A DNA stretch of 64,000 nt from positions 422,356-486,355 of the forward strand of contig SIJG01000005.1 of NCBI GenBank assembly GCA_023374025.1. Reading direction: 5' to 3'. Below, piece by piece: positions 16,586 to 56,022 of this stretch. This stretch comes from Heterodera schachtii. Lineage: Eukaryota > Nematoda > Chromadorea > Rhabditida > Heteroderidae. Positions within the stretch are counted from its first letter, which is position 1; every line of letters begins with the position of its first letter. Below the pieces are notes generated by a model. That model searched no databases, was not told the origin of the DNA, and was given only the letters and a program-made list of their open reading frames with translations. Made by a program: the position numbers and the translations under genes.

Positions 16586-17630
16586 ATGAAAACATTCTTC
16601 GTATTAATATTAATATTATACGTTTTATTATTAAAAAATGCAAATGACCAAACTGAAGCAGGCAAAATAAATCAATAAAAAAGTTTTGGTGAAATATTTG
16701 GCCAAAGATGGGACGACAGAGCGGAAGAGAACAGTGAAGAAATGTCCACAAATTCTGATCAATTTGAACAATTGCCAAGAAAAAGTGGACAGATTTGTGA
16801 TCATTTTTCAAATGCAATTGATAAAAAGAAAAGAGAAATTGTGGAAAAATTTCATAAGATTAAAGAGAAAATTAAGCAAATGGGAAAGAAATATTCAGCC
16901 AAAGAATGGACAAAAATTGAAAGAAAAATTGCCAAAAATTTGGGTGAAAATAGGAACAAAATTTATGAATGGAAAAGGGAATTTGGAATGATGACGAAAA
17001 AAAATCATTCAATTGAAGAAAAACGGAAAATTTTAAAGCAATTTGATCAAATATATGGCAAATTAAAAATGAAATTAAATGAAAAATTGGAGGGAAAAAG
17101 AGAAAAATGTCAAAAATTAATAGCAAAACAATTGGGCATTGATATCAGAAGCATTCAAAGATGGAAAAAACATTTAAATGGAGAATATTTAGTTAAAAAT
17201 CACAAAACTGATGGCAAAAAAAGAGAAATTATTGAAAAATATTTTAAATTAAAAAATGAATTTATCCAAAATAGAAAAAATTCACTGAAGGAATGGGAAG
17301 AATTTAGAGCAAAAATAAAACAAATTTTTGGAAGAGATTGTACAACAATTGAAAAATGGGCCAAAAAAATTGGCATCAAAGAGAATAATATTCAAAAAGG
17401 TAAAAAAGAATTTATTATTTTATTATTTAAAATTTTCAGTGCGAAGACTTTACACAATTGCTGAAAAAATGGAAATGATGAAACAATATTTTGAATTGAA
17501 AAAGCAAAATCCAAAGCTCACCGATGGCCAAATTGCCGAAATTTTGAAAATTCCACTAAGATCATTACAAAAATACAAATCCGAATTCAAGAGAAAAAGT
17601 GATGATGTTTTCGGGATATGGAGTGATTGA
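16586..17630 (+). pseudogene. Secreted HTH-repeat protein copy with an in-frame stop after the signal peptide
   Basis: Exons 16586-17399 and 17440-17630, with a 40-base phase-1 intron (AAAAAG/GTAAAA .. TTTTCAG/TGCGA). The first exon codes a signal peptide (MKTFFVLILILYVLLLKNA) and the conserved AGKIN-Q segment, but codon 31 is TAA (16676-16678) where sister copies have GAA. The acidic part that follows in relatives (ENICQIDQI..) is missing by an in-frame deletion. All four HTH-like repeats are intact downstream (about codons 78-134, 140-196, 206-263, and exon 2), with cores such as IAKQLGIDIRSIQRWKK. An ATG at 16742 could give a protein without a signal peptide. Either a recent pseudogene or a one-base assembly error. 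Confidence 0.75.
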
Positions 17631-17812
17631 GATTCTATTTTCAGGTGTTCCTGTTAGTTTAGAGCAATTTTTGTATTTTGAAGAATCCAAAAAGTTTGTT
17701 TTTTAGATTATGATAAAGATGTTTTTAGCAAATTCTAATTCGTCCTTTAAAATCAAAATTATTCTTTTAATATTTGCTTAAAAAGATATTAAAATATAAT
17801 TTATGCCAGGGG

Positions 17813-18168
17813 CGTAGGCAGGGGGGGGGCTGAGGGGGCTGCTAAAGCCCTCCCCCTGAAACCCAAAAAAGTAAAAAAATTTCAGTAAAATTTCTTTAAA
17901 TTTTAAGCAATTTTCTTAACAAAATAGCATTTAAAATACTCAAAAATTTTCCCGATGGTGACTAACGGCACCGCCGGACTCCCACTTTAGAATTTTCTCG
18001 AAAAATAAGAGACCAAAATGGAAAAAATTACTAATTATCTGGCGAAAAACGGCTAAAAATTTTGTGAAATACACCCCTAAAAATTGACTGAAAAAAGAAA
18101 AATACACCCCTAAAAATCGAATTTTTGACTTCAGCCCCCCTGCTGAAGCCATGGGTCTGGCTACGCCC
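17813..18168. mobile_element. CAGGGGCGTAG-ended non-autonomous element
   Basis: Starts CCAGGGGCGTAGGCAGGGGG and ends GGTCTGGCTACGCCCTTG, inverted. Contains the GC-rich hairpin-like GATGGTGACTAACGGCACCGCC at 17953 and ACACCCCTAAAAAT motifs shared with other elements. A clear 8-base target duplication was not found. Confidence 0.6.
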
Positions 18169-18490
18169 TTGCACAAATTGCAATCATCGTGGTCACTACC
18201 GCCCAAAATGCCGACTATCACATCGGCTTCATCTAAGTACAAGTCTCAGCACCACCTTGCCACAATGTCAATTTTCAACATCGGAGACGATGATATTTTG
18301 GACTGAATCCTGGTTGACTGTCACATCAATGGCAAGAAAACAACACTGATGGCACCGATTCTGTTCAAATTTGGCGCCGTCATGCAGCAAACATTATGGG
18401 AGCAATTAGGCAGTCCAAAACTCAAAAAGGGCATTTCCAAAGCTAAAATATATTCGGGACACTGTTTCGAAATCTTTGGATAATGCATTT
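18160..18490 (+). mobile_element. Degraded retroelement fragment: CCHC zinc knuckle and protease-like remnant
   Basis: At 18170-18211 the frame reads CTNCNHRGHYRPKC, an exact C-x2-C-x4-H-x4-C zinc knuckle as in Gag proteins of LTR retroelements. Shortly after, with stops and shifts, come segments resembling the following protease region (LVDCHINGKKTTLMAPILF, where the expected active-site D-S/T-G is not kept). No LTRs, reverse transcriptase or integrase are nearby, so this is an old fragment. Relation to Gypsy/BEL-type elements is an inference. Confidence 0.6.
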
Positions 18491-18764
18491 TGTTTAGTAA
18501 TTGTAAATTATGAAGTTTATTAAAAAAATTTGGTTAGAAAGTTATAAAATACCTTCACTTTTTAAATTTTTGCCAGGAAGGAAAATTGTGAACAGTAAAT
18601 AAATGTTCAAAAGCTAAAATACCTATAAAATTAGTTAAAATTTGAGTATTTCGCTACAATTTATCTTGTAATGCAATTTTTTCAATTATATATTTTAAAA
18701 TTCAATTTTAAAATTTGCAATTTTTACTATTTTAAATTTTATTTTATTATGTGTACAACCAGTA

Positions 18765-19090
18765 AATGTTTTGGTAATTATGTCAAAAAAGCGGATCCAA
18801 AAAATATCCATAACCGCGGGTTTTTGGGAGAGGAATTTTCTATTAGGGCTGCTCGAGAAATTGGTATCTAATTTGGGTCAAGAAAAATATGGGCTTTTTC
18901 AATTAACGGCATAATTAAAAGAAATTGTGAGTTTTCGAGCAATTGAAAGATGGACCAAGAAAATTGGCATCAATCAAATTCTTTAAAGGGTGAAATTTTT
19001 AAAGGATTTTTGTTATTTTAAATTTATTTAAATATTATAGAGCGGAAATTTTTTTTTATAAAATTTCTGAAAAAATGGAAAAGATTAGTG
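18765..19090 (+). pseudogene. Remnant of an HTH-repeat gene
   Basis: After the duplicated 5' segment (18765-18905), 18940-18990 reads IERWTKKIGINQIL, matching the end of HTH repeat 3, and 19040-19085 carries a degraded version of the terminal exon start (R-K-x-F.. EKMEKI). Everything between the upstream region and repeat 3 is deleted. Confidence 0.55.
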
Positions 19091-19214
19091 AAGGAATCAT
19101 TTTGTAAACTCTATCATTTTTTAGCTCACAAATTGAAAAATAAATTATTTTTCATAAAAAACATAATATGAAATTATGCATAATTTACAGTTTCCTCATA
19201 AAAAACATATAATG

Positions 19215-19243
19215 CGATCGATCTATTGACTCTGCTTGAATAA
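19215..19243 (+). promoter_or_regulatory. Shared upstream motif of the HTH-repeat family
   Basis: GCGATCGATCTATTGACTCT GCTTG lies about 100 bases before the ATG at 19328, inside a 170-base block that is nearly identical to 16375-16545. Confidence 0.55.
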
Positions 19244-19327
19244 AAGCAAAAATTATGAATAATTTAAATGAATACAAAAAAATAATGGAAAATCATTTAA
19301 AAATATTTTCACATTTTATTTTAAAAA

Positions 19328-19801
19328 ATGAATACATTCTTCGTATTAATATTAATATTATACGTTTTATTATTAAAAAATGCAATTAACCTAATTGAGG
19401 CTGGCAAAATAAATCAAGAAAAAAGTTTTTATCAAATATTTGGCCAAAAATGGGACGAAAGAACAGAAGAAAACATCTGCCAAATTTATCAAATAATGCA
19501 TGGAGAAACAGTTGATCAGAACAGCCAATTTGGACAAAATGGTCGACAATTAGATCAAAGTTTTGATGAAAATATGGAAGTGAAAGAAGAAAGTGGAACA
19601 AATTGTGATCAATTGGAACAATTGCGAACAAATATTGGACAAATTTCTGAACATTTTTCAAATGCAATTGATAAAAAGAAAAGAGAAATTGTGGAAAAAT
19701 TTCATAAAATTAAAGAGAAAATTAAGCAAATCGGAAAGAAATATTCAAAAAAAGAATGGAATAAAATTGAAAGAAAAATTAAATTTTTGCCTGAAAAATA
19801 G
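19328..19801 (+). pseudogene. Truncated HTH-repeat family member, 157 aa
   Basis: Open from ATG 19328 to TAG 19799-19801. It keeps the signal peptide (MNTFFVLILILYVLLLKNA), the conserved AGKINQEKSF..IFGQ(K/R)WD segment, the acidic linker and the first half of HTH repeat 1, then diverges after KKEWNKIERKIK and stops. Repeats 2-4 and the terminal exon are absent; the next 280 bases show no family sequence. It could still make a short secreted protein, so pseudogene is a judgement from comparison with full-length copies. Confidence 0.7.
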
Positions 19802-20084
19802 AGGAAAAAATTGGTGTGTGTTATTATTGCTTATTGATTGTCTGTGATCATAGAAGGGAAAATATGAAATTTACAAAAAAAAAATTTCAAAAAAAATTGT
19901 TATACATTTTTAAAACAATAATTAATATTTTTATGAATAAAATAATATTAAGACTTAAATAAAAACACAAATTGGTGATGGTAAATTATTGAATTGATTA
20001 AATAAATTAGCTAAAATATTCATTAAATATAAATAGTTTAATTATTATTTTTTCATAAAATATCATTCATTTTATTTGAAAACC

Positions 20085-21230
20085 ATGCAAATTTTAATAT
20101 TATTTTTATTACTATTATTCAAAAATGCAATTAACCAAATTGAAGCAGGCAAAATAAATCATGAAAAAAGTTTCGATGAAATATTTGGCCAACGATGGGA
20201 TGAAGGAGCTGAAGAAAACATCTGTCAAATTGATCAAATAATGCATGGAGAAATTGCTGATCAGAATCAAAATAGTCATCAACAAATTGATCAAATTTTT
20301 GATAAAAGTTTTGAAGTGAAAAAAGAGGAGAGTGAAGAAATGTCCATAAATGATGGTGATCAATTGGAACAATTGAGAGAAAATGTTGGACAAATTTGTG
20401 ATCATTTGATAGTTTTGGAAAATAAAAAGAAAAGAGAAATTGTGGAAAAATTCCATAAAATAAAAGAGAAAATTAAGAAAAAGGGGAAGAAACATTCATA
20501 TAAAGAATGGAGTAAAATAGAAAGAAAAATTGCAAGAAAAATGGGTGCAAATCAAAAGAAAATTTACAAATGGAAAAAGGAATTTGGAATGATGACGAAA
20601 AAAAATCATTCAATTGAAGAAAAACGGAAAATTTTAAAGCAATTTGATCAAATATATGGCAAATTAAAAATGAAATTAAATGAAAAATTGGATGGAAAAA
20701 GAAAGAAATGCCAAAAATTAATAGCAAAACATTTGGGCATAAATATCAAAAGCATTCAAAGATGGAAAAAACATTTAAATGGAGAATATTTAGTTAAAAA
20801 TCACAAAACTGATGGCAAAAAAAGAGAAATTATTGAAAAATATTTTAAATTAAAAATGAATTTATCCAAAATAGAAAAAATTCACTGAAGGAATGGGAAG
20901 AATTTAGATTAAAAATAAAACAAATTTTTGGAAGAGATTGTACAACAATTGAAAAATGGGCCAAAAAAATTGGCATCAAAGAGAATAATATTCAAAAAGG
21001 TAAAAAAGAATTTATTATTTTATTATTTAAAATTTGCAGTGCGAAGACTTTACACAATTGCTGAGAAAATGGAAATGATGAAACAATATTTTGAATTGAA
21101 AAAACAAAATCCAAAGCTCACCAATGGGGAAATTGCCGAAATTTTGAAAATTCCACTAAGATCATTACAAACTTACAAATCGGAATTCAAGAGAAAAAGT
21201 CAAGATGTTTTCGGGATATGGAATGATTGA
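20085..21230 (+). CDS. Secreted HTH-repeat protein, frame broken by one missing A
   Basis: Exons 20085-20999 and 21040-21230 around a 40-base intron. ATG 20085 is chosen over an upstream TTG because it starts the hydrophobic signal segment (MQILILFLLLLFKNAINQ). Then come AGKINHEKSFDEIFGQRWD, an acidic Asp/Gln/Glu linker, and HTH-like repeats 1-4. In repeat 3 the run at 20852-20856 has five A where the 16586 copy has six (17251-17256); the frame then hits TGA at 20886-20888. Adding one base makes exon 1 end in phase 1, exactly fitting the terminal exon, and the downstream sequence stays conserved. The 3' half (20600-21240) is almost identical to that of the 16586 copy, suggesting recent duplication or gene conversion. 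The TATTGACT upstream motif is not seen here. Confidence 0.75.
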
Positions 21231-21654
21231 GAATTTTTTCAATTTTCAGGGTTTAGTCAATGGGTTAGGTTGATAAACAAAATGATTAAATCAATCTTTT
21301 TAACAATGAATTGACTAGCAATTATTTAATTTTAATTATTTCGTAATTACTCTCTTAACGCCAAATATGTTTGTATTTATGTGCCAAAAAAACCAAAATA
21401 AGTGCTAAAAATAAAAAACAAAGCCAAAATATATGCCATAAAAAAAAATGCTCAAAAAATGTGAATTTCACAAAAAAAAAAAAATCTCATTTTATCAAAT
21501 CCGCTTACAAAATTCTTTTTAATAATTGAATAACTTTGGGCTTCCGGTGCAATTAACGGCTCAGTTGTCGAACAAAAAAGGGCATTTTTCTTTTATAAAA
21601 GTTGAAAAATTTTGTTTCTAACCGCGTGCGCAATTAATTAATATTTTTTCAATC

Positions 21655-33725: not shown

Positions 33726-36700
33726 ATGGTAAATATTTCTATTAATATTGTTTTTATTTTTCTCTTTGCTTTTGCCACACGCTTATGTGGAGGCAACCCA
33801 AAAGATGACAAAAATGCTGCCTCCAGCTCAAGTGGGACTAGCAAAACGGAAAACTCCGAAAACCAAGTGGCTAAAAAGAATTTGGTGATAATTACGGACA
33901 TGGCGGTGGAAGACCAATTTACACTGGAGATGATCAGCGCAACAGAATTGGTCGGTAAAGTGTTGGCCATTGGGACGACGGAGCAAGGAAGAGAAGCAGC
34001 ATTGGCACAATCACTGGGACTGGGGAAAGCGCGAGTGTATGTGAGAAGTAGTAATGAAGAACTCGAGAAAATGCTTTTACTGAATCCCAATGAAAGTAGG
34101 TTCAATTTACAAGTTGAAACGTTGGCATTTTGCCTTGAAAATTGTTTTTAATTTTAGAGAAGCCAAAAAGAGAGGAAAATGAATTTCAAAATTTTTTGAA
34201 AAATTTGCTGGGTGAAAGATTGAAATTTATGGGAGTAAAGGTTAATTTTTTGGTGCTGGCACCTCCAACCGATTTAACTGCAGTATTATTGGAGAATAAA
34301 AAATTGGCTGAAGCTGTTGGGCAAATATTTATTTCGGACGGATGTAAAAATTGCCAAGATTTACAACCGCCGGCACCGCTTAGCCTGAACAATTTTTTGT
34401 GGCAATTAGCAAAGAAACAGACAATTACCAGAACATACAATGTTCGCATGGACGCATTAGCAACTGCGTACCTTTTCGAAATGGCCTCCAATGGTGAAGT
34501 TAATGTACTACTAGTTTCTTCAAGTTTACTTGCTGAAAAATTCGGTGATGGGGTCGAATTTGGCAGAAAATTTCCAAAACTGAAATTGATAAGCAAAAAG
34601 AATACACTGGGTTTTAAAATTATTGTTGAACGAGAAAAAAAAGTCCAACAAAAGCCATACATTGATGAGAAATTCAGTTCTGCAGGTCCAATTGCTGTGC
34701 TTGTAATTATGGATATGGCAAATGTAAGGCTGGATGGAATGCCAGAATCTGACAAATTCGTCCTGTTGACAATTCGGGCAAAGAAAATGAGCTTAATCAC
34801 CCCAGAAAGTGGAGGGAAAAAGCCAGAAGATGGTGAATACCAAGTAGAAGTTGGAATTAAACAAGCAATAAAAATAAGATTGCTTGCCAATTTTAATGTT
34901 GACACATTTGGAAACGCAATGACACTTATTCTTGACAAAATCAACAAACAACGCCAAGAGGCGAAAAAGAATTTGGTGATAATTACGGACATGGGGGTGG
35001 ATGATCAATTTACACTGGAGATGATCAGCGCAACAGAATTGGCCGGTAATGTGTTGGCCATTGGGACTACGGAGCAAGGAAGAGAAGCAGCATTGGCACA
35101 AGAACAAGGACTGGCGAAAGTACCAGTGTATGTGAGAAGCAGTAATGAAGAACTCGAGAAAATGCTTTTTATAAATCCATATGAGAGTAGGTTCATTTTC
35201 AAGTTGAAAACTTGACATTTTACAGCAAATTTTTTATTTTTAGAGAAGCCAAAAAGAGAGGAAAATGAATTTCAAAATTTTTTGAAAAATTTGCTGGGTG
35301 AAAGATTGAAATTTATGGGAGTAAAGGTTAATTTTTTGGTGCTGGCACCTCCAACCGATTTAACTGCGTATTATTGGAGAATAAAAAATTGGCTGAAGCT
35401 GTTGGGCAAATATTTATTTCGGACGCAAGTAAAAATTGCCAAGATTTACAGCCGCCGGCATCGCGTAGCCTGAACAATTTTTTGTGGCAATTAGCAAATA
35501 AACAGACAATTCCCAGAACATACAATGTTAGCATGGACGCATTAGCAACTCTTTACCTTTTCGAAATGGCCTCCAATGGTGAAGTCAATGTCCTACTAGT
35601 TTCTTCAAGCTTAATTGCTGAAAAGTTCGGTGATGGGTTCGAATTTGGCAAAAAATTTCCAAAACTGAGATTGATAAGCCAAAAGAATATACTGGGTTTT
35701 AAAATCAATGTAGAACGAGAAGAAGAATTTCAACAAAAGGCACACATTGTCGAGCAATTTAGTGCTGTAGGTCCAATTGCTGTGCTTGCAATTATGGATA
35801 TGGCAAATGTAAGGCTGGATGGGATGCCCGAATCTGACAATTTTGTCCTGTTTACAATTCGATCAAAAAAAGTGAGCTTGATCATCCCAAAAAGTGGAGA
35901 GGAAAAGCCAGAGCATGGTGAATACCAAGTGGAACTTGGGATTAAACAATCAATAAAAATTAGATTGCTTGCCAATTTTAATGTTGACACATTTGGTAAC
36001 GCCATAACACTGATTCTTGAAAAAATCAACAAACAATGCAATTACAAAAATTTGTCCGAGAAACCAAAGGTATAGTACAAATGAGAAAAAACTGTTTGTT
36101 CTCTAGATATTACTCAATAACCAATTTTAATTTTATTACCCTATTAGGAGAAGAAGATAAACAATGATCCAAAAGATGAGAAAAATGCTGCCTCCAGCTC
36201 AAGTGAAAAAAATGATCCAAAAGATGAGAAAAATGCTGCCTCCAGCTCAAGTGAAAAAAATGATCCAAAAGATGAGAAAAATGCTGACTCCAGCTCAAGT
36301 GCGCCTACCGAAAAGGAAAACTCCGAAAATGAAGAGGTGAAAAAAAATTTGGTGATAATTTCGGACATGGGGGCGGAAGATCAATTTACACTGGAGATGA
36401 TCAGCGCAACAGAATTGGTCGGTAAAGTGTTGGCCATTGGGACGACGGAGAAAGCAAGAAAAGCGGCATTGGCACCACAATCACTGGGATTGCATAAGGC
36501 GCCAGTGTATGTGAGAAGCAGTAATCAAGAACTCGAGAAAATGCTTTTTATGGGTCCCAATGAGAGTAGGTTCAGTTTGCATGTTGAAACCTTGTCATTT
36601 TGCCCTGAATTTTTTTTAATTTTAGAGAATCCAAAAAAAGATGAAAACGAATTTCAAATTTTTTTGAAAAATTTGCTGGCTGAAAGATTGAAAACTAATG

Positions 36701-37515
36701 GAATGAAGGTTAATTTTTTGGTGCTGGCACCTCCGACCGATTTAACTGCAGTATTATTGGAGAATAAAAAATTGGCAAAAGCAGTTGGGGAAATACTCAT
36801 CACGGGCGGATGTACAAATTGCCAAGATTCGCAACATCCGGAACAGCTTAGCCTGAACAATTCTATTTGGCAACGACTTTTGGAACAGACAACTTCTAGG
36901 CTCAAAAATTTCTGGCAACGATTTAGGGAACAGACAATTCCAAAGCCACCAACATGCAACCTTTGCATCGACGCATTGGCAAATCTCTATATTTTAGAAA
37001 TGGCCTCCAATTGTGAAGTTAATGTCCTACTCATTAGTTCATATTTGCTTGCTAAAAAGTTCAATAATGTGGATGATTTTAACAAAAATTTCCCAAAACT
37101 AAAACTATTAAACAAAGAGAATATACTTGGTCTTCAAATTCGTGTAAATGGGGATGAAGAATTTCAGCAAATGCCCCACATTGACGAGCAGTTCAGTCCT
37201 GCAGGACCACTTGCTGTGCTTGCAATTATGGATATGACACGTGTAAAGCCTGATGGAATGCCAGAATTTGACCAATTTATCAAGTTCACAATTCGTGCAC
37301 AAAAATTGAGCTTGATCCTCCCGAAAAGTGGAGTGGCAATGCCAAAGGAAGCACATGAAGTGGAAGTGAGAATGCCAGAAAAAGATGAAAAACTAACTGC
37401 AATTAGATTGATTAACAATTTTGATGTTGAAATATTTGGGAAAGCACTGACCTTTATACTTGACAAAATTGAGAAACACCGCAATAACAAAAAGATGTCC
37501 GTGCCCATAAAATGA
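33726..37515 (+). CDS. Secreted protein with three tandem nucleoside-hydrolase-like domains
   Basis: Exons 33726-34095, 34158-35186, 35244-36069, 36148-36565, 36626-37515; the three introns inside domains fall at the same phase-1 site (GTAGGTTC donor, TTTTAG/AGAA acceptor). A signal peptide (about residues 1-22) and a short Asp/Lys/Ser linker precede domain 1. Each domain shows the nucleoside hydrolase order: the strand VIITDM.. aspartate motif (ITDMAVEDQ, ITDMGVDDQ, ISDMGAEDQ), VLAIGTTEQGR, PVYVRSS, VNFLVLAPPTDL, TYNV(R/S)MDALAT, AGPIAVL.IMDM, and a C-terminal NFNVDTFGNAMTLIL. The family's C-terminal His-Asp (HDP) is replaced by AGP, so classical ribohydrolase activity is doubtful. Domains 1 and 2 are fused directly; domain 3 follows a DPKDEKNAASSSSEKN triplicate linker. 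Domain 2 lacks one A near 35367, which breaks the frame; adding it restores phase 0 at the next donor. Confidence 0.78.
36160..36300 (+). repeat. Triplicated 45-base coding repeat in the linker before domain 3
   Basis: Three near-identical copies of AATGATCCAAAAGATGAG plus AAAAATGCTGCCTCCAGC and TCAAGTGAAAAA, coding NDPKDEKNAASSSSEK. The single-domain gene has one copy of the related segment right after its signal peptide (NPNDDKNAASSSSG), so domain 3 begins like a mature protein whose signal exon was lost when the domains fused. Confidence 0.8.
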
Positions 37516-40816: not shown

Positions 40817-41930
40817 TCATTTGAATTCGGATTTGTAATTTTGTAACGATCTTTTTGGAATATTTAAAATGTCGGCAATTTTGCCATCGGTGAGCTTTGG
40901 GTTTTGATTTTTCAATTGATAATTTTGTTTCATAATTTCAATTTTTTCAGCATTTGTGTGATGCTTTCGCCCTGTAATATTTAAATAACAAAAATAAACA
41001 AATTCTTTAAAAATTCACCTTTTAAAATATTCTCTTTGTGACAATTTTCTTAGCACATTTTTCAACTGTTCTATAATCTCTTCCAAAAATTTCTTTTATT
41101 TTTGCTTTAAATTCTTTCCATTGCTTTCGTGAATGTTTTCCATTTTGCATAAATTCATTTTTATTTTCAAATATTTTTCAATAATTTCTCTTTTTTCATC
41201 ATCAGTTTTTTGTTTTTTAACAAATTTTCCATTTTTTAATTGTCTCTTCCATCTTTGAATGCTTATTAAACTTGTGCCCAAATGTTTTGCTATTATTTTT
41301 TGGCATTTTTCTCTTTTTCCCACCAATTTTTCTTTGAATTTCTTTTTTAATTTGCCAAATATTTGGTCAAATTGTTTTAATTTTTTAACACTTTTCTTCA
41401 ATTGAGTAAGCGTTTTTGATCAGACCAAATTCTCTTTTCCATTTGTGAATTTTCTCAAAACTAACACCCAAATTTTGTGCAATTTTTCTTTCAATTTTAT
41501 CCCTTTGTTTTTTTGGGTATTTTTTTCCCATTTGCTTAATTTTTTCTTTTATTTTATGGAATTTTTCCACAATTTCTTTCTTCTCTTTTTCATTTAAAAT
41601 TCGAATTTGCTCAAAAATATGTCCACTATTTTCTGGCAATTGTTCCAATTGATCACTGTTTGTGGACATTTCTTCACTTTCCTCTTTTTTCAGTTCCAAA
41701 TTTTCATCAAAAATTTGATCAACTCGTTGATAATTTTGATTCTGATCGGCAGTTTCTGCATGAATTATTTGATCAATTGAACAGATGTTTTCTTCTGCTC
41801 CGTCGTCCCATCTTTGGCCAAATATTTCATCAAAACTTTTTTCTTGATTTATTTTGCCAGCCTCAATTTGGTTAATTGCATTTTCAAATATTAATCCGCA
41901 CAACAATAAAAATATTAATACTATTTTCAT
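40817..41930 (-). pseudogene. HTH-repeat family member with several frameshifts
   Basis: Minus strand; exon 1 41930-41019, terminal exon 40971-40817. ATG 41930 opens a good signal peptide (MKIVLIFLLLCGLIFENAINQ) followed by AGKINQEKSFDEIFGQRWDD and the acidic linker, then repeat 1 (IERKIAQNLGVSFEKIHKWKR). A one-base insertion near 41400 (frame ends ..SIEEKC stop), a missing A in the repeat 3 run near 41160, and a rearranged end of exon 1 (IVTKRIF where relatives have IGIKE.NIQK) each break the frame. The terminal exon is intact (IADILNIPKRSLQNYKSEFK, TGA 40819-40817). Multiple independent lesions make this the clearest pseudogene of the family. Confidence 0.78.
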
Positions 41931-44984: not shown

Positions 44985-45260
44985 GCCCCACTCCCGCATA
45001 TGCCAACAATTGTTTGGCATACGTCAAAGCCCTCATTTATCAATAAAAAAAATATGCCAACAATTATATGACAACTGAGACATATCATTTTCCCCTTTTT
45101 CTCTGCCATACTCTTCATTTAACATACTGTCTATTCTACATTGTCTTTGTATCTTTTCCGCTATCCTTTATACAAATACTATTTTCATACCTACCCCAAA
45201 TTCTCATCTGAATTTCCATATTAAAACAGATTGTGAATATGAAAAAATTATCATTTGTTA
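44985..45260 (+). promoter_or_regulatory. 5' region of the single-domain nucleoside-hydrolase-like gene
   Basis: Contains GCATATGCCAACAATTGTTTGGCATACG, ATATGCCAACAATTATATGAC, TCTGCCATACTCTTCATTTAAC and the end TTCTCATCTGAATTTCCATATTAAAACAGAT, the same order as 32690-33570 but with a single unit. The ATG is at 45388. Confidence 0.5.
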
Positions 45261-45387
45261 GGGGAATAGTGACTGAGAAAATTCGCCCATTACTAATGAA
45301 ATTTTTATTTTTCCATTATTTCAAAAATTAGGCCTAGGGATGCCTAGTCAATTTTCTTATAAAGCTTAAACAAAAATTTTATAGAAA

Positions 45388-46846
45388 ATGGTAAATATTT
45401 CAATAAATATCGGTTCTATTTTTCTCTTTGCTTTTGCCACAAGCTCATGTGGCGGCAATCCAAATGATGACAAAAATGCTGCCTCCAGCTCAAGTGGGCC
45501 AAGCGAAACGGAAAACCCCAAAAACGAAGAGGCGAAAAAGAATTTGGTGATAATTACGGACATGGGGGCGGATGATCAATTTACACTGGAGATGATCAGC
45601 GCAACAGAATTGGCCGGTAAAGTGTTGGCAATTGGGACGACGGAGCAAGAAAGAAAAGCGGCATTGGCACAATCACTGGGACTGGATAAAGTGCCAGTGT
45701 ATGTGAGAAGCAGTAGCGAAGAATTCAAAAAAATGCTTTTAACGAAGCCCAATGAAAGTAGGTTCAGTTTGCAAGGAAATTTTGGCATTTTGCAGCAATT
45801 TTTTTTTTAAATTTAGAGAAGCCAAAAAGGAAGGAAAATGAATTTCAAAATTTTTTGAAAAATTTGTTGGATGAAAGATTGAAAACTAATAGTAAGGTTC
45901 ATTTTTTGGTGCTGGCTCCTCCGACCGATTTAAGCGCCGTTTTATGGGAGAATAAGGAATTGGCTGAAGCAGTTGGAGAAATACATATTACGGACGGATG
46001 TTGTAAAAAGTGCCAAGAATCTAAACCGGCGCCGGCACCGCTGAGCCTGAACAATTTTTTGTCGGAATTACTAAGGGAACACACCAAGCCAACAACATAC
46101 AATGTTAGCATGGACGCATTGGCAACTGTGTACCTCTTGGAAATGGCCTCCAATCGTGAGGTGAATGTCCAACTAATTAGTTCATATTTGCTTGCTCAAA
46201 AGTTCAATAATGTGGACGACCTTAACAAAAATTTCCCAAAACTAAAACTGAGAAACGAAGCGAATGCACCGGCAGATATTAAAATAATGCCACTCATTGA
46301 CGAGCAGTTCAGTCCGGCAGGACCAATTGCTGTGCTTGCAATTATGGACATGTCACGTGTAAAGCCTGATGGAATGCCAGAGTTTTCCCAATTCACCAAG
46401 TTAACAGTTCGAGCAAAAAAAGTGAGCTTGATCATGCCGAAAAATGGAGAGGAGAAGCCAAATGATGGGTTGAGCTTGATCATGCCGAAAAATGGAGAGA
46501 AGAAGCCAAAGGAAGGACACGAAGTAGAAGTCAAAATGCCAGAAGACGCTAAAAACCAAACTTTAATTGGATTGATTAGCAATTTTAATGTTCAAACATT
46601 TGGAAAGGCAATGACATTGATTCTTGAGAAAATCGAGAAACAACGAAATGCCAAAAAATTGTCCAAAAAAAACAAGGTATAGGACAAAAGAGAAAAAAAT
46701 GGTCTGGTCTCTAAATATATTAATTACTCATTAATCATTTTAAATTTACCTATTTAAATTTTAATTACCTTAATTAGGGAAAAAAAATTGGCGCTGCCTT
46801 CCGACAATTCCAAAATTTCTTATCACCAAACAGAAAAAACAAGTAA
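45388..46846 (+). CDS. Secreted nucleoside-hydrolase-like protein, single domain
   Basis: Exons 45388-45757, 45817-46676, 46778-46846; the frame is intact and gives 432 aa. Signal peptide about residues 1-21, then an Asp/Asn/Ser/Lys linker. Residues 52-64 are the aspartate motif NLVIITDMGADDQ (Asp58, Asp62, Asp63), matching three metal-binding aspartates of the nucleoside hydrolase DPGxDD loop; the first Asp of the usual DxD is Ile. Further along come VLAIGTTEQ, VPVYVRSS, VHFLVLAPPTDL, TYNVSMDALAT and GPIAVLAIMDMSRV, where the catalytic HDP triplet would be. A KNGEEKPNDG/KNGEKKPKEG repeat lies near the C-terminus. The last exon adds a basic 22-residue tail (GKKIGAAFRQFQNFLSPNRK). The domain-internal intron is where the three-domain gene has it. 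Substrate and activity unknown; a secreted, possibly inactive, nucleoside-binding role is inferred. Confidence 0.82.
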
Positions 46847-47999: not shown

Positions 48000-49155
48000 T
48001 CACTCCATATTCAGAACATCTTGACTTTTTATCTTCAATTCAGATTTGTAATTTTCTAAAGATCTTTTTGGAATGTTCAAAATTTCAGCAATTTTGCGAT
48101 CGGTGAGTTTTGGATTTTGGGTTTTCAATTGATAATATTGTTTCATCATTTCCATTTTTTCAGCAATTGTATAAATCTTCTCACTCTGTAAATTGAAAAA
48201 AAAAAAAAATTTGGTAAAGAATTATTTAAAATTCACCTTTTAAAATATTTCGATTTACGCCAATTTTCTGCGCCCATCCTTTAAGTGTTGAATAACTCAC
48301 ACCAAACATTTGCTTAATTTTTGCATTAAATTCTTTCCATTCCTTCCGTGAATGTTTTCCAATTTGCTTAAATTCATTTTTTGTTTTCAAATAATTTTCA
48401 ACAATTTCTCTTTTTTCATCATCAGTTTGTTGATATGGTTTTTCATTTTTAAATTGTTTCTTCCATTTTTTAATCGTTCTGAGACTTATGCTGAAATGTT
48501 TTGCTATTATTTCTTGGCATTTTTCTCTTTTTCCTTCCAATTTTTCATTTAATTTCATTTTTAATTTGCCATATATTTGATCAAATCGCTTTAATATTTG
48601 GCGTTTTTCATCATCCGCATAATAATGCTTTTTAATCATTCCAAATTCCCTTTTCCATTTGTAAATTTTCTCTCTGTTTGCTCCCATTTTTTGTCCAAAT
48701 TTTCTTTCAATTTTCACCCATTCTTTTCTTGAATATTTCTTTCCCATTTGCTTAATTTTCTCTTTTATTTTATGGAATTTTCCCACAATTTTCCTCTTTT
48801 GTTTGTCATTTAAAATGCGATTTTGATCATAAAATTGTGCACTATTTCTTGGCAATTGTTCCAATTGATCACTATTTATGGACATTTCTTCACTTTCCTC
48901 ATCTTTCACTTCCAAATTTTCATCAAAAATTTGATCAATTTGTTGTTGACCATTTTGATTCTGATCAGCATTTTGCGCATGAATTATTTGATCAATTTGA
49001 CAGATGTTTTCTTCTCCTCCGTCGTCCCATCTTTGACCAAATATTTCATCAAAACTTTTTTCTTGCTTTATTTTGCCAGCTTCTGTTTGGCCAAGTTGAT
49101 TTTTTAATATTAAAACGCATAATATTACTATTAACATGAAGAATATTTTCATCAT
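48000..49155 (-). CDS. Secreted HTH-repeat protein
   Basis: Minus strand. ATG 49155 (or 49152) begins the signal segment MMKIFFMLIVILCVLILKN. Then AGKIKQEKSFDEIFGQRWDD, an acidic linker, and three uninterrupted HTH-like repeats: KIERKFGQKMGANREKIYKW, IIAKHFSISLRTIKKWKK and IKQMFGVSYSTLKGWAQK. The repeat 3 A-run has six A here, and the frame is open. The terminal exon is 48185-48000 (YTIAEKMEMMKQYYQL..IAEILNIPKRSLENYKSELK). With the donor used by relatives (after 48237) the junction makes a stop; a donor at 48259/48258 (GGC/GTAAAT) joins in phase 0 and gives about 360 aa. The alternative is a one-base insertion at the start of the terminal exon. The upstream motif is at about 49240-49262. Confidence 0.75.
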
Positions 49156-49231
49156 TTTAATAAAATGGGAAAATAAATATTTCTTAAACAATTTTTTATT
49201 ATTCATTTTATATTAATTTAAATTATTAATC

Positions 49232-49264
49232 AATTCGGCTTTTGAACCAAGCAGTCAATAGATG
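49232..49264 (-). promoter_or_regulatory. Shared upstream motif of the HTH-repeat family
   Basis: Read on the minus strand: ATCTATTGACTGCTTGGTTC AAAAGC, about 90-105 bases before the ATG at 49155. Confidence 0.55.
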
Positions 49265-49299
49265 ACATTAAATGATTTTGCAGAAAGATGTAAAGTAAA

Positions 49300-50021
49300 T
49301 TAAGGATAAACTTAAATTACGACAAATGGTTTTCTTTTCAATTCAAAAAATGAAAATCCCTCACTTTTTTTTGCATAATTACCACAAAATTTCAACCAAC
49401 AAAAATTCTAAAAATGGTGCTTAACAAATAAATATAAAATTTAAACTAGGAAAAAATTTTTTGTAAAAATTGCATAATCAAAAATGATTGGATTTTTAGA
49501 TTGAAAAATTTGCCAGATTGATTGATAGGTTGAAATTGTTGCATGTTTTTTAAAATAAATCACAAACAAAAATTTATCATCTATAAAGAAACAATACAAA
49601 AAATTTTGAAATTTTTTAGACCCAATAATCCTTTCCAACAGCTAGGCATAGGATCCATCTCGAGAATGCTCGAATTCGAACTGTATTTGGTTTTTTAAAT
49701 TATCTTTAATATTGTAAATACAACAAAAATTACAGAAAAATGTTTATGTTTACGAAAAAAATACAAATAAAGCTAAAAAGATTATCAATCCCAAAGAAAA
49801 AAAGGCAAAAATAGAAATTTTCCTTAATATGTTGTACTCTATTTTCTCATTTATTTAAGGTGTACTGTATTTTTCTCTTTAAATTTAAATTTTTTTAGTT
49901 TTCGGGAAATAAAAACATAGATCTCCTTAAAGAAAATTTAATTTTATTTGTATTTTTTGGATTTATTTTTCCGTTGCAATTCATTTCATCTCGACAAATT
50001 TTTGGTCGCCACCTGTCCTTT
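49300..50021. other. Intergenic DNA between two HTH-repeat genes
   Basis: AT-rich. 49490-49640 (AATTTGCCAGATTGATTGATAGG...CCAATAATCCTTTCCA) is copied at 52240-52370. No gene seen. Confidence 0.5.
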
Positions 50022-51224
50022 TCAAAACTTCGCCACATTTTCTTGAAATGCAACTTTAAATCTGGCTAATGAAGCTGTTGAGATTTTGAAAATTTGGGCA
50101 ATTTTTCGATCACTGAGATTTTTATTTTCATTTTTCAGCTGATAATATTGCTTCATCATTTCCATTTTTTCAGAGATTGTTAAACATTTTCGCTCTGTAT
50201 TATAATATTAAATGAATAAATTTCTCATAAAAATTAAAATTGAAATAGAAAATTTAATTTAATTTAATTTAATATATAAATTACTTAATGAATTAATTTG
50301 TTTGATGCCTAATTTCTTTGCCCATTCTTCAATTGTCATATGACTCACATCAAAAATTTGTTTTATTTTTGCTTTAAATTCTTTCCATTCTTTCTGTGAA
50401 TGTTTTCCCAATTGCATAAATTCATTTTTTATTTTAAAATATTTTTCAACAATTTCTCTTTTTTGCTCATCAATTTTTTGATTTTTCACTGATTTTCCAA
50501 TTTTAAATTGTTTCTTCCAATTATAAATGGTATTGATATGAATACCCAAATGTTTTGCTATTATTTTTTGACATTTTTCTCTTTTTCCTTCCAATTTTTC
50601 ATTTAATTTTATTTTTAATTTGCCATATATTTGATCAAATTGTTTTAATATTTCTCTTTTTTCCTCATCCGAGTAACTGTTTCTGTTGATATTCATTCCA
50701 CATTCTCTTTTCCATTTGTAAATTTTCTCCCGATTGATTCCCAATTTTTGTGCAATTTTTCTTTCAATTTTAGCTCTTTCTTTTTCTGAGTGTTTTTTTC
50801 CCATTTGCTTAATTTTTTCTTTAATTTTATTAAATTTTTCCACAATTTCTATTTTCTTTTTATCAATTGCATTTGAAAAATGATCAGAAATTTGTCCATT
50901 TTTTGTTGGCATTGGCAATTGGTCGCCCAATTCATCACAATTTGTGGACATTTCTTCACTCTGCTCTTCTTTCACTTCCAATATTTCATCAAAAATTGGA
51001 TCAAATTGTTGATCATTTTGTCTAAATTGGTTATTCTGATCAGCATTTTCTCCACTAATTATTTGATCAATTCGGCAGATGTTTTCTTCTGTTCCGTCGT
51101 CACATCTTTGGCCAAATATTTCAGCAAAACTTTTTTCTTGCTTTATTTTGCCAGCCTCAATTTGGTTAATTGCTTTTTCGAATATTAATGCGCATAACAA
51201 TATAAATATTAATAAAATTATCAT
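50022..51224 (-). CDS. Secreted protein with four helix-turn-helix-like repeats (intact family reference)
   Basis: The cleanest copy: exons 51224-50285 and 50194-50022 on the minus strand, phase-1 intron (A/GTAATT .. ACAG/AGCGA), 370 aa. ATG 51224 is preferred to an in-frame ATG 15 codons upstream because it starts the signal peptide (residues 1-20, MIILLIFILLCALIFEKAIN). Residues 24-44 hold the conserved AGKIKQEKSF..IFGQR segment; 45-118 are acidic and Gln/Asp-rich. Repeats lie at about 122-177, 186-242, 252-308 and 315-362. Repeats 1-3 start K(R/I)EIVEKF.KIK and end with a helix-turn-helix-like core (IAQKLGINREKIYKWKR, IIAKHLGIHINTIYNWKK, IKQIFDVSHMTIEEWAKK); repeat 4 is the shorter SEKMEMMKQYY..DRKIAQIFKISTASL. 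Lys-rich clusters resemble nuclear localisation signals. Secretion plus DNA-binding-like repeats suggests a protein acting in another cell's nucleus; this is inference. Confidence 0.82.
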
Positions 51225-51302
51225 GTTTTGTAAAATTAAATGAGAAAATACTTTTAAAAATGCTTCCAATATTCATTTTAAACCAATTAAATTATTATTT
51301 AA

Positions 51303-51337
51303 TTCGGGTTTTTGAACCAAGCAGTCAATAGATCCAT
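51303..51337 (-). promoter_or_regulatory. Shared upstream motif of the HTH-repeat family
   Basis: Minus strand: GATCTATTGACTGCTTGGTT CAAAAACCC, about 90-105 bases before the ATG at 51224. Confidence 0.55.
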
Positions 51338-51439
51338 ATTTTTATAATTGATACGAATATTTTCATGATTTTTTAAAAAAAAATGAGAAAATATTTTTTT
51401 CAACAAAAATTCTTTCTTGCTTATTTTTATAAATTTCAC

Positions 51440-51535
51440 TTATTAATCAATTGGGCTTATGAACCAAACAGTCAATAGATCGCATTATATGATTGTTATC
51501 AGGAAGGTGTAAATTGTGCAGAATTTTAAATTACG
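51440..51535 (-). promoter_or_regulatory. Orphan copy of the HTH-family upstream block
   Basis: Minus strand: CTGCACAATTTACACCTTCC TGATAAC..ATATAATGCGATCTATTGACTGTTTGGTTCATAAGC. It matches 16440-16500 in order and spacing (AATTTACAG.TTCCT..ATATAATG.GATC..TATTGACT). No gene follows before the next copy of the motif at 51337, so this is a leftover of a lost gene or an upstream duplicate promoter. Confidence 0.5.
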
Positions 51536-51539
51536 AAGA

Positions 51540-53940
51540 CTATTAAAAATGATTTCATTTTATTTTTACCGGAACCTATGCCCGGAAAAGTCTCATTTTC
51601 TTGACCCGAAAATGAATTCCGATTTTTTGAGCAGCCCAAGTGGAGTTTAAAATAGGAAAATTTTTGTAAGAGAAAATTCAAGTTCCCATTGCACTCACTA
51701 CAATAAAATTTACATCGGAATATTTAAATCTTTTTAACTATTTTAATTTATTACGGACAACTCTTTTTCCTGACAAAGTTTAATATTAAAGGCATTTTTA
51801 ATAACTTTCTAACGAATTATTTCAAAAAAAATCAAAAATTTACAATTTTATAAATTTAATGAGTTCCTGGTAATATTTTATTAAAATATTTGTCCAGCCT
51901 TTTTTGATTCTTTCATCAAATTACAAAAATTCATCAAACCTAACAAAAAAAATAAGCCGTAAAAAAGGCGGTATGAAAAGTTAAATAAAAATAGTGAACA
52001 AAATCAGTTGATTTGATTTAAATTTATAGAAAATTTTAATCAATTTTTAGTGAATACGAAAACTTAAAAAAAAGTCCGGGATTTTCGGTCTCGAACAGTC
52101 TAGTTATGTCCATAATTTTTGTTACAAATAATTTTTACCAAACCTCTAAAATTTTCTTAGGGAAAAATTATTTTTTCAAAAACTTTGAGCTTCGTGCTTC
52201 GAGCTTCGAAAACTTCGGGTTTTTGTGGTGCTTAGAAAAATTTGCCAGATTGATTCATAGGCTGAATTTATTGCTTGTTTTTTAAAGAAATCATAAACAA
52301 AAATTTGCATCTATAAAGAAATTATACAAAAATTTTTAAATTTTTTTAGACCCATTAATCCTTTTCAATAGCTAGCTATTAAAATGCTTTTATAAGCGAA
52401 CCATAAATAAATTTTATTAATTAATTCAGCACAATATGACTGATTTTCTGATAAAACTACAAATAAATGAATAGGTGATACGGTTTTAGGGTTTTTCCTA
52501 GGCTCCCAGTGGCCTGAAACGCACGAAAAACAAGTTTTTTTTTGGTGATTGTTAAGTTACTTTTCGAGTTATTAGTGCCTATTTTCTAGGCTTTTATTTT
52601 AGAACAACCTAAAAACCAAAAAAAAAAAAATTTTTTTGAAAAAGACTATTTTGGAGTTTTGCAAAATTTATTAACAGAAATGCAATAAAAACAAAAAATA
52701 TACCCCCTAAAAAACGACCCTAAAATTTCAAAAATGCACCCCTAAGAAATTAAAAAATTTCTCAAATATTCATCTCCAAAATTTTTTTGATTCTCTTGAC
52801 AAGAATTTTTGATTTTAAAAATATTTACCCTAATATTGATTTGAGCCTAAAATTTACTAATTTTTGGCATGCGACAAGGAAAATTGTTCAAAATATATCT
52901 CCGTTTAGCAGTAGGAAGAATGAAAAAAAAAGAATAATTCAACCGCAAAAAACAATTTTCAAAATAACTAAGTTAAAAAATCTTATTCCTAATATTCTAA
53001 ATGACCGAATCTTTCCACATTTCCAACCAAAAACTTTGAATGCATTTATTCTAAGCCTCAGTGGATTCCTTATAAATTCAACTTTCATATTGAACCCGAA
53101 ACGAGATTCTCGAGCAGCTATAGCCATAACGCAAATATTAATTATGAAACAATCAAAATTAAATAAATGTTAGTTAATTGTTAAAAAGGCAGATTTGATA
53201 ATTTGGACGACATTTACAAATTTTTTAAATAGCATTTTTTGATAAAAATTTATCATCCTAATAATAAAATATCTAAAATCAAAAAAAAAAAAAATTTTAA
53301 AAAAATATTTCAAGCAAATATGTAGAAAATTGATCTGTATGTTTGTGTTTATTTTACAAAAGCAGATTTTTCTTAGCGCCAATCTTTTTTTTATAGAAAT
53401 TATTAACCCTAATAAAAAAGTGCAATAATTATGGATACTTTTCCGTTATGCCGTGCACCCCCATGAAAAATGTTCATGATCTCGCAAAAGTAAAGGCACT
53501 TTTCTGTGGTCGTTTTAGGCGCTGATCACCAGAATTTGGCGTCAGAACTACAAATTGGCCAAAAATGCTAATCACCGGCTTAATTAAAAAAGTGATCCGT
53601 CCCATTCCGACACCACAAAATTTGTTGGGCTATAACTTTTGATTGAGAGATACAGTAGAAGCCTGAATCAGATACCATTCGGTTCCTATCAACGAGAGTA
53701 ATTAATTAGTTGATTGTTATATGATATGATATATTTATTTCTTTTTTAATCATATGACGAAAATCATAGACAAAAGCATATAGTTTTGTAGCTTGGTGCA
53801 TAAATTTTAAAACCGAAATTTCTTTCAAAAATAAATAATAAATTTTGGATAAGAATTTTTAGAAAATTTTTCATTCTTAGGGTTGTATTTTTCTGAAATT
53901 TTTGGGGTCGATTCTTATGGATTATTTTTTTATTGCATTT
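51540..53940. other. Repeat-rich intergenic DNA
   Basis: 52240-52370 copies 49490-49640. 52465-52790 is a fragment of the GATACG.TTTTTAGG element family (GGCTCCCAGTGGCCTGAAACGCACGAAAAACAAG, ACACCCCTAAGAAAT). 53450-53640 is more complex unique sequence (GCCGTGCACCCCC.., CAAATTGGCCAAAAATGC) without a usable frame. An open frame of 128 codons at 52787-53173 starts inside element sequence and has no family or splice support. Confidence 0.45.
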
Positions 53941-53954
53941 TTATTAATAAATTG

Positions 53955-54140
53955 GAATTTGCTCAAAATTTATTGGTAATTGTTTCAATTGATTTGAATT
54001 TGTTGAAGATTCTTCAATCTCTTCATCTTTCGTTTCCAAATTTTCATCAAAAATGTGATTAAATTATTTCTCTCCTGTAATAATTGTTCAATATTTTCAT
54101 CTTTTTTTTTTTTATAAATTTTTCATGAAATTTCTTCTTG
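53955..54140 (-). pseudogene. Remnant of an HTH-repeat gene linker
   Basis: Minus strand reads FDENLETKDEEIEESSTNS and NQLKQLPINFEQIPI, matching the acidic linker of the family (FDENLEVKDEESEEMS, DQLEQLP). No signal peptide or repeats are left. Confidence 0.6.
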
Positions 54141-54149
54141 ACATTATTT

Positions 54150-54818
54150 CGTCAACTTTTGGATTTTGTAATAAAAAGAAGGACAAAATAAATCAACTAA
54201 AGCGCCGACGCAGGGGAAAATTTTAGAAATTTGATACGATTTTATAGGACACGGGCACCGCGTGATTGGCATTTACTGCTGGGGAAGGCCAACTTTCATT
54301 GGATGGGCTCGTCATTGGAAAGTTAACACAGAAATAAATGCATTAGAATTTAATTTTAATTAATTATTTTATATAATTGGATAGATATATTAATTTAAGT
54401 TTGATTAAAAGCGCAATTCATTCATTTAATTTAGGATGGGTACATTAAATTCAATTTCAATTAAAGCAATAATTTATATTATTAGATGGGTCCATTAATG
54501 CATTAATTTAACTTTAATTAAAACTATTAATTTAATTGAGTGATTTTAATTTGATTTATAATTTTTTTACGTTTTTAATTCTTAAAAATTTTATCAATTT
54601 TTAAAAAAAATATTTTGTCATCATTTTTTCAAGATTAGAATATATAATAAGAACAATTAATTTAGTTTCAAACTAATCACCTAAAAACATTAGCCTATTC
54701 GAAGCTTTTAATAATAAAAATATTTTTGTAAACGGATGAAAACTGAGATTAAACTTTTATCATAATTCAAATTTAAACAAACTCTCAACAAAAAAAATTT
54801 GAAATTTTCGAATTTTTT
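54150..54818. other. Intergenic DNA downstream of the last HTH-repeat gene
   Basis: 54180-54340 is slightly GC-richer unique sequence (AGCGCCGACGCAGGGG, ATGGGCTCGTCATTGG). 54350-54530 repeats a GATGGGTACATTAA(A/T)..TTTAATTAAA unit three times. No gene seen. Confidence 0.4.
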
Positions 54819-56022
54819 TCATTGTAATTTTTCACTAAATCTTCTTGGGATAATAAAATAATTGTCCTCATTATAGCAATTTGTTTTTGGTTTAATGCCA
54901 AATTCAGCTTTGTATTTGTGTAATGAACTTCTTGGAATGTTCAAAATTTCAGCAATTTTCCGATCGGTAAGCTTTGGATTTTGATTTTTCATTTGGTAAT
55001 ATTGTTTCATCTTTTCCATTTTTTCAGCAATCGTGAAAACATTTCGCTCTAAAATATTCAAAAATTTCAAAATGGAAGCAGAGATATTCAAATTTGACCG
55101 TTTTTAGCATTTTGTTTAATGCCGAATTTCTTGGCCCATTTTTCAATTGTTGAATAACCAACACCAAACATTTGTTTGAATTTTACTTTAAATTCTTCCC
55201 ATTCCTTCTGTGAATGTTTTCCCATTTGCATAAATTCATTTTTATTTTTATGTAATTTTCAACAATTTCTCTTTTTTCTTCATCATTTTTTTGATTGTCC
55301 ACCGAATTTTCAACTTTTAATTGTTTCTTCCATAAATAAATACTTCTAATATTTATGCCCAAATGTTTTGCTATTATTTTTTTATATTTTTTTCTTTTTC
55401 CCTCCAATTTTTCCCTTAATTTCATTTTTAATTTGCCATATATTTGATCAAATTGCTTTAATATTTCAAGCTTTTTCTCATCCGAATATCTGTTTTTGAT
55501 CATTTGTCCAAATTCCCTTTTCCATTTGTAAATTTTTCTATCATTTTCACCCAATTTTTTGGCAATTTTTCTTTCAATTTTCACCCATTCTTTTCTCAAA
55601 TATTTCTTTCCTTTTTGCTTAATTTTCTCCTTAATTTTATGAAATTTTTCCACTATTTCCCTCTTTTGCGTGTCATTTAAAATGCGATTTTGATCATAAA
55701 TTGGTCCATTATTTTCTGGCAATTGTTCTAATTGATCACAATTTGTGGACATTTCTTCACTCTCCTCTATTTTCATTCCCGAAATCTCATTAAAAAATTG
55801 ATCAAATTGTCGATCATTTTGTCCAAATTGGCTATTCTGATCAGCATTTTGTCCATAAATTAATTGATCAATTTGACAAATATTTTCTTCTGTTCTTTCG
55901 TCCCATCCTTGGCCAAATATTTCATCAAAATTTTGTTCTTGATTTATTTTTCCAGAGTTAATTTGTTCAATTACGTTTTCAAATATTATTAGGCATAATA
56001 ATGATATTAGGAAAAATTTCAT
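54819..56022 (-). CDS. Secreted HTH-repeat protein, frame broken by one missing A
   Basis: Minus strand, exons 56022-55099 and 55048-54819. ATG 56022 starts the signal peptide MKFFLISLLCLIIFENVIEQ; SGKINQEQNFDEIFGQGWD and the acidic linker follow. Repeats 1 and 2 are intact (IERKIAKKLGENDRKIYKWK, IIAKHLGINIRSIYLWKK). In repeat 3 the A-run near 55240 has five A instead of six, and the frame shifts to a stop at 55183. Downstream the original frame stays good (FKQMFGVGYSTIEKWAKK), and adding one base gives the exact phase-1 junction. The terminal exon (ERNVFTIAEKMEKM..IAEILNIPRSSLHKYKAEF) carries an extended C-terminus of about 27 residues not seen in other copies. Pseudogene, assembly error and translational recoding are all possible. 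Confidence 0.75.

What the first reader, a model, noticed from the sequence alone, without database searches (positions are those of the whole stretch)
16586..56022. A family of secreted proteins built from four helix-turn-helix-like repeats
Seen: at least seven copies or parts (1-181, 16586, 19328, 20085, 41930-, 49155-, 51224-, 56022-) share signal peptide, AGKINQEKSFDEIFGQRWD-type segment, acidic Gln/Asp linker, three long Lys-rich repeats with I-A-K-x-L-G-I-x(5)-I-x-x-W-K-K cores and a short fourth repeat on a separate exon. Known: such cores resemble HTH domains of Psq/transposase-type DNA-binding proteins. Inference: a secretory leader on a DNA-binding-like, nuclear-signal-rich protein suggests delivery into host cells and action in the host nucleus, perhaps derived from a domesticated transposase. 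I know of no described system with this exact layout.
Basis: partly seen in the sequence, partly recalled or inferred. Interest (0 to 1): 0.88.

Follow-up and report, generated by a model that had tools for sequence, protein, structure and literature searches.

The report
Secreted DNA-binding arsenal of cyst nematodes
A genome that is likely a cyst nematode's holds hundreds of genes and gene remnants marked by one short motif, and most of those examined encode proteins with a predicted secretion leader and one to four predicted DNA-binding repeats in which residues that likely face DNA are among the most variable, so the worm likely sends a diversified set of DNA-binding proteins into the plant cells it feeds on.

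Summary
In detail: all eight places are copies or pieces of one family with a leader, a conserved FDEIFGxxW motif, an acidic linker and helix-turn-helix (HTH) repeats R1-R4, R4 on its own exon. In the window only the 51224 copy looks complete. The repeats pass Pfam cut-offs for transposase-type HTH; R4 models as an HTH resembling TnpE and CENP-B. The main new result: the outward face of R4's recognition helix varies strongly on a conserved scaffold here, and again at preset positions in Globodera (P 0.00012), as expected of DNA readers with diversified specificity. Copies swap blocks. Expression, delivery, nuclear import and DNA binding are untested; no nuclear-signal or DOG-box excess was seen. 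Best reading: secreted DNA-binding proteins, probably transcription-factor-like effectors. Identity with the 'dorsal gland-like' family of G. pallida could not be tested.

The parts
1..181 (+). R4 exon (repeat 2-157, stop at 179-181) of a copy whose first exon lies before the window
   Evidence: translation; aligned with the other R4 units
16586..17597 (+). Copy with an in-frame stop just after the leader and a shortened linker; R1-R3 then open; R4 at 17445-17597
19328..19801 (+). Truncated copy: leader, motif, linker, start of R1
20085..21197 (+). Copy with a frame break in R3; R4 at 21045-21197
40820..41930 (-). Degraded copy: leader to R1 at 41930-41388, piece of R3 near 41171, R4 at 40966-40820
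48027..49155 (-). Copy with open first exon (leader, FDEIFGQRW, linker, R1-R3); R4 at 48179-48027; the usual splice would meet a stop at the start of exon 2 (by eye)
50022..51224 (-). Apparently complete gene: exon 1 from 51224 (leader, motif, linker, R1-R3), intron (GT..AG, phase 1, 90 bases), exon 2 = R4 (50192-50025)
54891..56022 (-). Copy with a frame break in R3; R4 at 55043-54891

Best explanation
The window holds part of a very large family, found so far in this likely cyst-nematode genome and in Globodera, of predicted secreted proteins built of a leader, a conserved FDEIFGxxW motif, an acidic linker and one to four predicted helix-turn-helix repeats, which would be delivered into plant cells and bind plant DNA there. 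The recognition helix of each repeat would read DNA. Its outward residues have diversified while the scaffold stayed nearly fixed (clear in R4, weaker in R2 and R3, not clear in R1), so different copies would read different sequences; block exchange between copies makes new combinations. The acidic, aromatic N-terminal part (F-D-E-I-F is a phi-x-x-phi-phi pattern of the kind bound by coactivators; recalled, not tested) would serve as an activation or co-regulator-binding segment. Shown here: anatomy, HTH profile match, copy number, presence in two genera, pattern of variability, mosaic copies. Predicted: leader, HTH fold. Inferred: cyst-nematode identity, DNA binding, delivery to the host, nuclear action, gene regulation.
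Confidence: 0.43

Rival explanations
1. Secreted DNA-binding proteins that never enter plant nuclei: they would act in the worm's own secretions (gut, amphids, seminal fluid, egg matrix), for example by binding extracellular DNA, microbes or viruses.
For: Leader and basic HTH repeats; no nuclear-signal or DOG-box excess; a large G. pallida family that might be this one has male-specific and digestive-system members (passages of PMC4054857; identity untested).
Against: Free DNA needs no sequence-specific reader, yet the likely readout residues are among the most variable.
Confidence: 0.25
2. Secreted host-directed proteins whose HTH scaffold was reused to bind plant proteins; the variable face would follow changing protein targets or escape plant immune receptors.
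For: Variability on one helix face and block exchange also fit immune escape; in Globodera site 42 of that face is mostly hydrophobic; some sites on helices 1 and 2 vary as well.
Against: Variation is concentrated on the face that HTH proteins use for bases: dN/dS 1.38 there against 0.29 in helix 1 and 0.54 in helix 2; in this genome K, R and S are its commonest residues.
Confidence: 0.2
3. Remnants or products of transposons: the HTH would be a transposase domain spread by mobile elements, and the leader a chance feature.
For: Automatic names say Transposase for 57 of the 120 rows listed (counted by eye); dispersed copies; many broken copies.
Against: No catalytic domain recognised in the Pfam results (and precomputed lists); similarity between copies is confined to the gene, with no shared flanks; dN/dS 0.20-0.82 in windows over R1-R3; 127 of the 150 copies scored in one class have no stop in the match (counted by eye); motif in 97 of 123 Globodera proteins, 82 with a hydrophobic stretch just before it.
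Confidence: 0.06

Closest known systems
HsvG and HsvB, type III effectors of the gall-forming bacterium Pantoea agglomerans
   Same: Secreted effectors with HTH motifs as a putative DNA-binding domain, acting as transcriptional activators in plants (passage of review PMC12886408).
   Different: Bacterial, type III secreted, two proteins with two nuclear signals; here a predicted eukaryotic leader, hundreds of loci, no nuclear-signal excess. No sequence comparison was made.
TAL effectors
   Same: Secreted repeat proteins whose base-reading residues vary on a fixed scaffold; activation segment (recalled).
   Different: TAL repeats are about 34 residues and read one base each (recalled); here HTH units of about 50-60 residues, one to four per protein, with no known code.
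GLAND4 (1106) of cyst nematodes
   Same: Secreted cyst-nematode effector reported to act in the plant nucleus as a transcriptional suppressor; called a DNA-binding protein in the title of Barnes et al. 2018 (passages and reference list of PMC12886408; the original paper is not held).
   Different: A small family (15 paralogues in H. schachtii, 9-10 in Globodera; passages of PMC10946958). Sequences not compared.
[quoted passage not shown]
   Same: Huge, divergent cyst-nematode family (474 or 295 members), partly clustered, no C. elegans homologue of the consensus, no function (passages of PMC4054857 and PMC4213498).
   Different: No HTH, motif or layout is mentioned in the passages seen; identity with the present family could not be tested because no sequence was at hand. 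It may be the same family.
CENP-B / pogo-type and IS-type transposase HTH domains
   Same: Fold and profile match of the repeats.
   Different: No DDE catalytic domain recognised, several HTH units in a row, leader in front.
HYP effectors of Globodera
   Same: Cyst-nematode effector genes with rearranging internal units (passages of PMC11228951).
   Different: HYPs have no Pfam domain and vary by allele at single loci; here HTH domains at hundreds of loci.

Membership tests
Transposase (HTH_Tnp_1 / CENP-B type) | HTH DNA-binding domain | tested here: met
   Pfam over cut-off
Transposase (HTH_Tnp_1 / CENP-B type) | Catalytic DDE or related domain | tested here: not met
   none in the Pfam scans of the proteins given; none that I recognised in the precomputed Pfam lists of the 120 rows
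Transposase (HTH_Tnp_1 / CENP-B type) | Element ends shared by copies | tested here: not met
   484 alignments across exon 1 start near the ATG (median -4) and end near the R4 stop (median +1092); within the flanks held only
Psq HTH (PF05225) | Match over Pfam cut-off | tested here: not met
   12.6 bits, cut-off 20.4, in one of five R4 units given; not listed for the six proteins
Transcription-factor-like effectors (HsvG type) | Secretion signal | tested here: met
   hydrophobic leader in all 33 ORFs kept, by hydropathy only; type III secretion does not apply
Transcription-factor-like effectors (HsvG type) | Several HTH motifs | tested here: met
Transcription-factor-like effectors (HsvG type) | Nuclear localisation signal | tested here: inconclusive
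   no excess of one basic-cluster pattern over shuffles; no dedicated predictor available
Transcription-factor-like effectors (HsvG type) | Binds and regulates host DNA | not testable with these tools
   needs experiments
GLAND4 effectors | Sequence homology to GLAND4 | not tested
   no GLAND4 sequence was fetched; copy numbers differ widely
DGL family of G. pallida | Sequence homology to the H. [quoted passage not shown]
   sequence not available in the tools
HYP effectors | No recognised Pfam domain; allelic variation at single loci | tested here: not met
   Pfam HTH domains; many loci

The most novel reading that the evidence does not exclude
Cyst nematodes carry an animal counterpart of TAL effectors: hundreds of secreted transcription factors, each an acidic-aromatic activation segment plus an array of HTH readers whose base-reading residues are diversified by selection and shuffled by gene conversion, used to reprogramme plant genes at the feeding site and overlooked because databases call them transposases.
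Probability: 0.3. Interest if true: 0.95.

Novelty: new variant of a known kind. Interest (0 to 1): 0.85.

Why it matters
If right, one of the largest secreted families of a major group of crop parasites is a DNA-reading arsenal hidden under the label 'Transposase'. It would offer a concrete answer to how cyst nematodes reprogramme plant cells into feeding sites, supply hundreds of natural HTH readers with varied recognition helices for specificity studies, and make the question testable with standard binding screens. It may also change how some genome-wide statistics in these worms are read, because HTH matches scored as transposase or viral terminase may come from this family.

Tried and rejected
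Rejected or left open: (a) Chance similarity: five other window copies 63-68% identical, 876 motif matches vs 0 control. (b) Root-knot nematode: pectate lyase PL3 is present (27 exon matches) and GH28 absent, and relatives are in Globodera, so a cyst nematode fits; 178.5 Mb in 356 contigs is near the H. schachtii assembly (~179 Mb, 395 scaffolds; passages of PMC9582021), but a recalled H. schachtii ITS primer word was not found, so the species stays open. (c) Mobile element as the unit of spread. (d) Psq membership. (e) Promoter words DOG box and Mel-DOG not in excess. (f) Viral relatives: six stretches matched a pattern, none encodes a relative of one Globodera member. (g) Donor transposase: pogo-type DDE_1 matches exist in the genome (15) but I found no link to this family; the R4 and PF01527 lists were capped at 150 scored matches and I did not sort family from other members. 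(h) Solved structures by sequence: none for one Globodera member. (i) Foldseek: no match at E<=0.001 for either model; a family not listed is not excluded. (j) The first protein search, with the 51224 protein, found nothing among 3261 candidates; a second-class protein and an alignment did. (k) The first splice script chose wrong acceptors and was replaced; even so it finds a frame-keeping GT..AG pair in only 16 of the 28 copies that have a fourth repeat in the DNA held. (l) Rfam and tRNA scans of the window: nothing.
Full report
WHERE IT LIES. The window is bases 422,356-486,355 of contig 5 of a 178.5 Mb, 356-contig genome. The nematode spliced leader SL1 (recalled 22-mer) occurs 204 times, its reversed control 0 times. 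Pectate lyase PL3 gives 27 exon matches and GH28 none. A table in PMC4213498 (a passage) gives GH28 as 0 in the cyst nematode G. pallida and 2 in each of two root-knot nematodes. The named relatives of the family are from Globodera. I therefore take it for a cyst nematode; the size resembles the H. schachtii assembly, but the species is not proven.

THE OBSERVATION. The eight places are real. Each full copy has a hydrophobic leader, then (A)GKI(K/N)xEKSFDEIFGQRWD, an acidic Gln/Asp/Glu-rich linker, three repeats R1-R3 of about 55-60 residues with a core ending in ...L-G...I-x-x-W-K, and R4 of about 50 residues on a second small exon. In all 33 ORFs kept (one of 34 that began inside the protein was dropped) the first residues hold a hydrophobic core (best 11-residue mean 2.06-3.85; best 19-residue mean elsewhere at most 1.47), and the pI of the mature part is 8.9-9.8. 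Of 28 copies with an R4 in the DNA held, a script finds a frame-keeping GT..AG pair in 16, 15 of them in phase 1, intron 45-102 bases, and none in the other 12. In the window only the 51224 gene looks complete.

SIZE OF THE FAMILY. A protein search of the genome with the 51224 product gives 137 matches (119 of 2403 candidates scored), mostly on contigs 5, 6, 34, 36 and 40; 20 of the 30 loci fetched have no stop in the match. R4 alone finds modules in many other places (150 scored of 1516 candidates). Four such loci, chosen by their HTH match, encode the same layout with fewer repeats: leader, motif, R1, R3, R4 on one exon (L064, L066, L067), or leader, motif, R1 and a middle HTH with R4 on a second exon (L065). 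The DNA pattern for F-[DNYH]-[EQ]-I-F-G-x-x-W has 876 exact matches, the reversed pattern 0. Three of these were taken by the pattern alone: all three have a leader before the motif; two have clear HTH repeats after it (in one of them in another frame, so broken), and the third only a relic. For the L064 class 150 copies were scored of 3805 candidates; 127 have no stop in the match (counted by eye). So the family runs to hundreds of loci, many broken; the number of intact genes is not known.

OTHER SPECIES. The 51224 protein found nothing in the protein database, but the L064 protein found 11 G. rostochiensis proteins, and an alignment of nine members found 337 proteins at E<=0.001. The 120 listed are 118 from G. 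rostochiensis and 2 from G. pallida; 57 are named 'Transposase' and one 'Secreted protein' (counted by eye). Of the 123 Globodera proteins held, 97 carry the N-terminal motif and 82 of these have a hydrophobic leader just before it; two have no motif near the N-terminus because of odd gene starts, and others are cut or divergent. They have 1 to 4 HTH units (81 with two, 36 with three) and the last is of R4 type in 119. F, E, I, F and G of the motif are invariant in the nine-row alignment of both genera, while the linker differs (in Globodera it holds IEPNSTDQ-type repeats).

THE VARIABLE FACE. In 45 distinct R4 units of this genome the recognition helix alternates between nearly fixed positions (40, 41, 44, 45, 48) and variable ones (38, 39, 42, 43, 46), that is, an inward and an outward face. 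Site 42 is the most variable of the domain; 38, 39 and 46 are among the most variable, 43 less so; sites 2, 20, 28, 32 and 33 outside this helix vary strongly too. Mean entropy of the outward set is 2.53 against 1.30 for random sets (P 0.0003); dN/dS is 1.38 against 0.43 for the rest, 0.29 in helix 1, 0.54 in helix 2 and 0.23 on the inward face. The positions were picked after seeing these data, so I tested them unchanged elsewhere. R2: entropy P 0.012, dN/dS 0.98; R3: P 0.020, 0.72; R1: P 0.10, dN/dS 0.18, below the rest of that unit (0.29), though with dS taken from the whole unit it is 0.54 against 0.26. In 109 distinct R4 units of Globodera: outward 2.29, inward 0.15, all 0.99, P 0.00012; sites 39, 42 and 38 are the top three there, but site 42 is mostly Y, V, F, I or C. 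With close pairs only, outward pN (0.206) does not exceed outward pS (0.265), so I claim strong local diversification, not proven positive selection. A fixed scaffold with varied residues on the base-reading face is what one expects of a family of DNA readers that change specificity; it does not prove DNA binding.

MOSAICS. Of 528 pairs of copies, 37 have an identical run longer than in any of 300 column permutations (about 2 expected). Three copies share 96-100% identity in windows up to R1 and 71-93% after it in the longest comparison; another pair is 88-100% identical at both ends with a block of about 80% between. This fits gene conversion that swaps HTH blocks. Similarity between copies stops near the gene's ends, so the gene, not a mobile element, is what is duplicated.

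HOW IT LIKELY WORKS. Shown: anatomy, copy number, spread in two genera, variability, mosaics. Predicted: leader, HTH fold. Inferred: export, entry into plant cells, nuclear action, DNA binding, gene regulation. The 30 residues from the motif onward are acidic (mean net charge -6.4 here, -5.2 in Globodera) yet hydrophobic; of windows sampled 60 or more residues downstream, 0 of 403 here and 9 of 1053 in Globodera are alike. F-D-E-I-F has the phi-x-x-phi-phi form of coactivator-binding segments (recalled), hence the idea of an activation segment. Against: no excess of basic clusters or DOG boxes, no expression data.

WHAT IS KNOWN. Ten searches of the open paper library showed me no description of this layout; subscription papers are mostly not in it. 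Transcription-factor-like effectors are known: HsvG/HsvB with HTH motifs, TALEs, GLAND4 (passages of PMC12886408). A G. [quoted passage not shown] 295 in PMC4213498, passages) may or may not be this family; that is the main gap in the novelty claim. In H. schachtii, segmentally duplicated genes are enriched for 'viral DNA genome packing' and DNA integration terms, read there as viral or transposon functions (section 8 of PMC9582021, read whole). Since the present repeats pass the Terminase_5 and HTH_Tnp_1 cut-offs, part of that signal may come from this family; this is inference.

Noticed in passing
genome-wide; literature: Published GO enrichment of 'viral DNA genome packing' and DNA integration among segmentally duplicated H. 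schachtii genes (PMC9582021) may partly reflect HTH matches (Terminase_5, HTH_Tnp_1) of this secreted family rather than viruses or transposons.
   Followed up: partly
window 34139-37515 (+) and 45762-46682 (+): Long ORFs in higher-GC stretches with weak, sub-threshold similarity to nucleoside hydrolase (IU_nuc_hydro, E 0.003, 0.003 and 0.09).
   Followed up: no
window 785-1339 and elsewhere: A dispersed intergenic repeat with further copies in the window (e.g. 2855-3387, reverse) and beside other family loci.
   Followed up: no
Globodera rostochiensis proteins P0008-P0018: The linker of several paralogues holds repeated IEPNSTDQLGQ-type units whose number differs between them, a second layer of variation.
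   Followed up: no
contigs 9 and 30 of the genome: SL1 spliced-leader genes in tandem arrays with spacing of about 577 and 612 bases.
   Followed up: no
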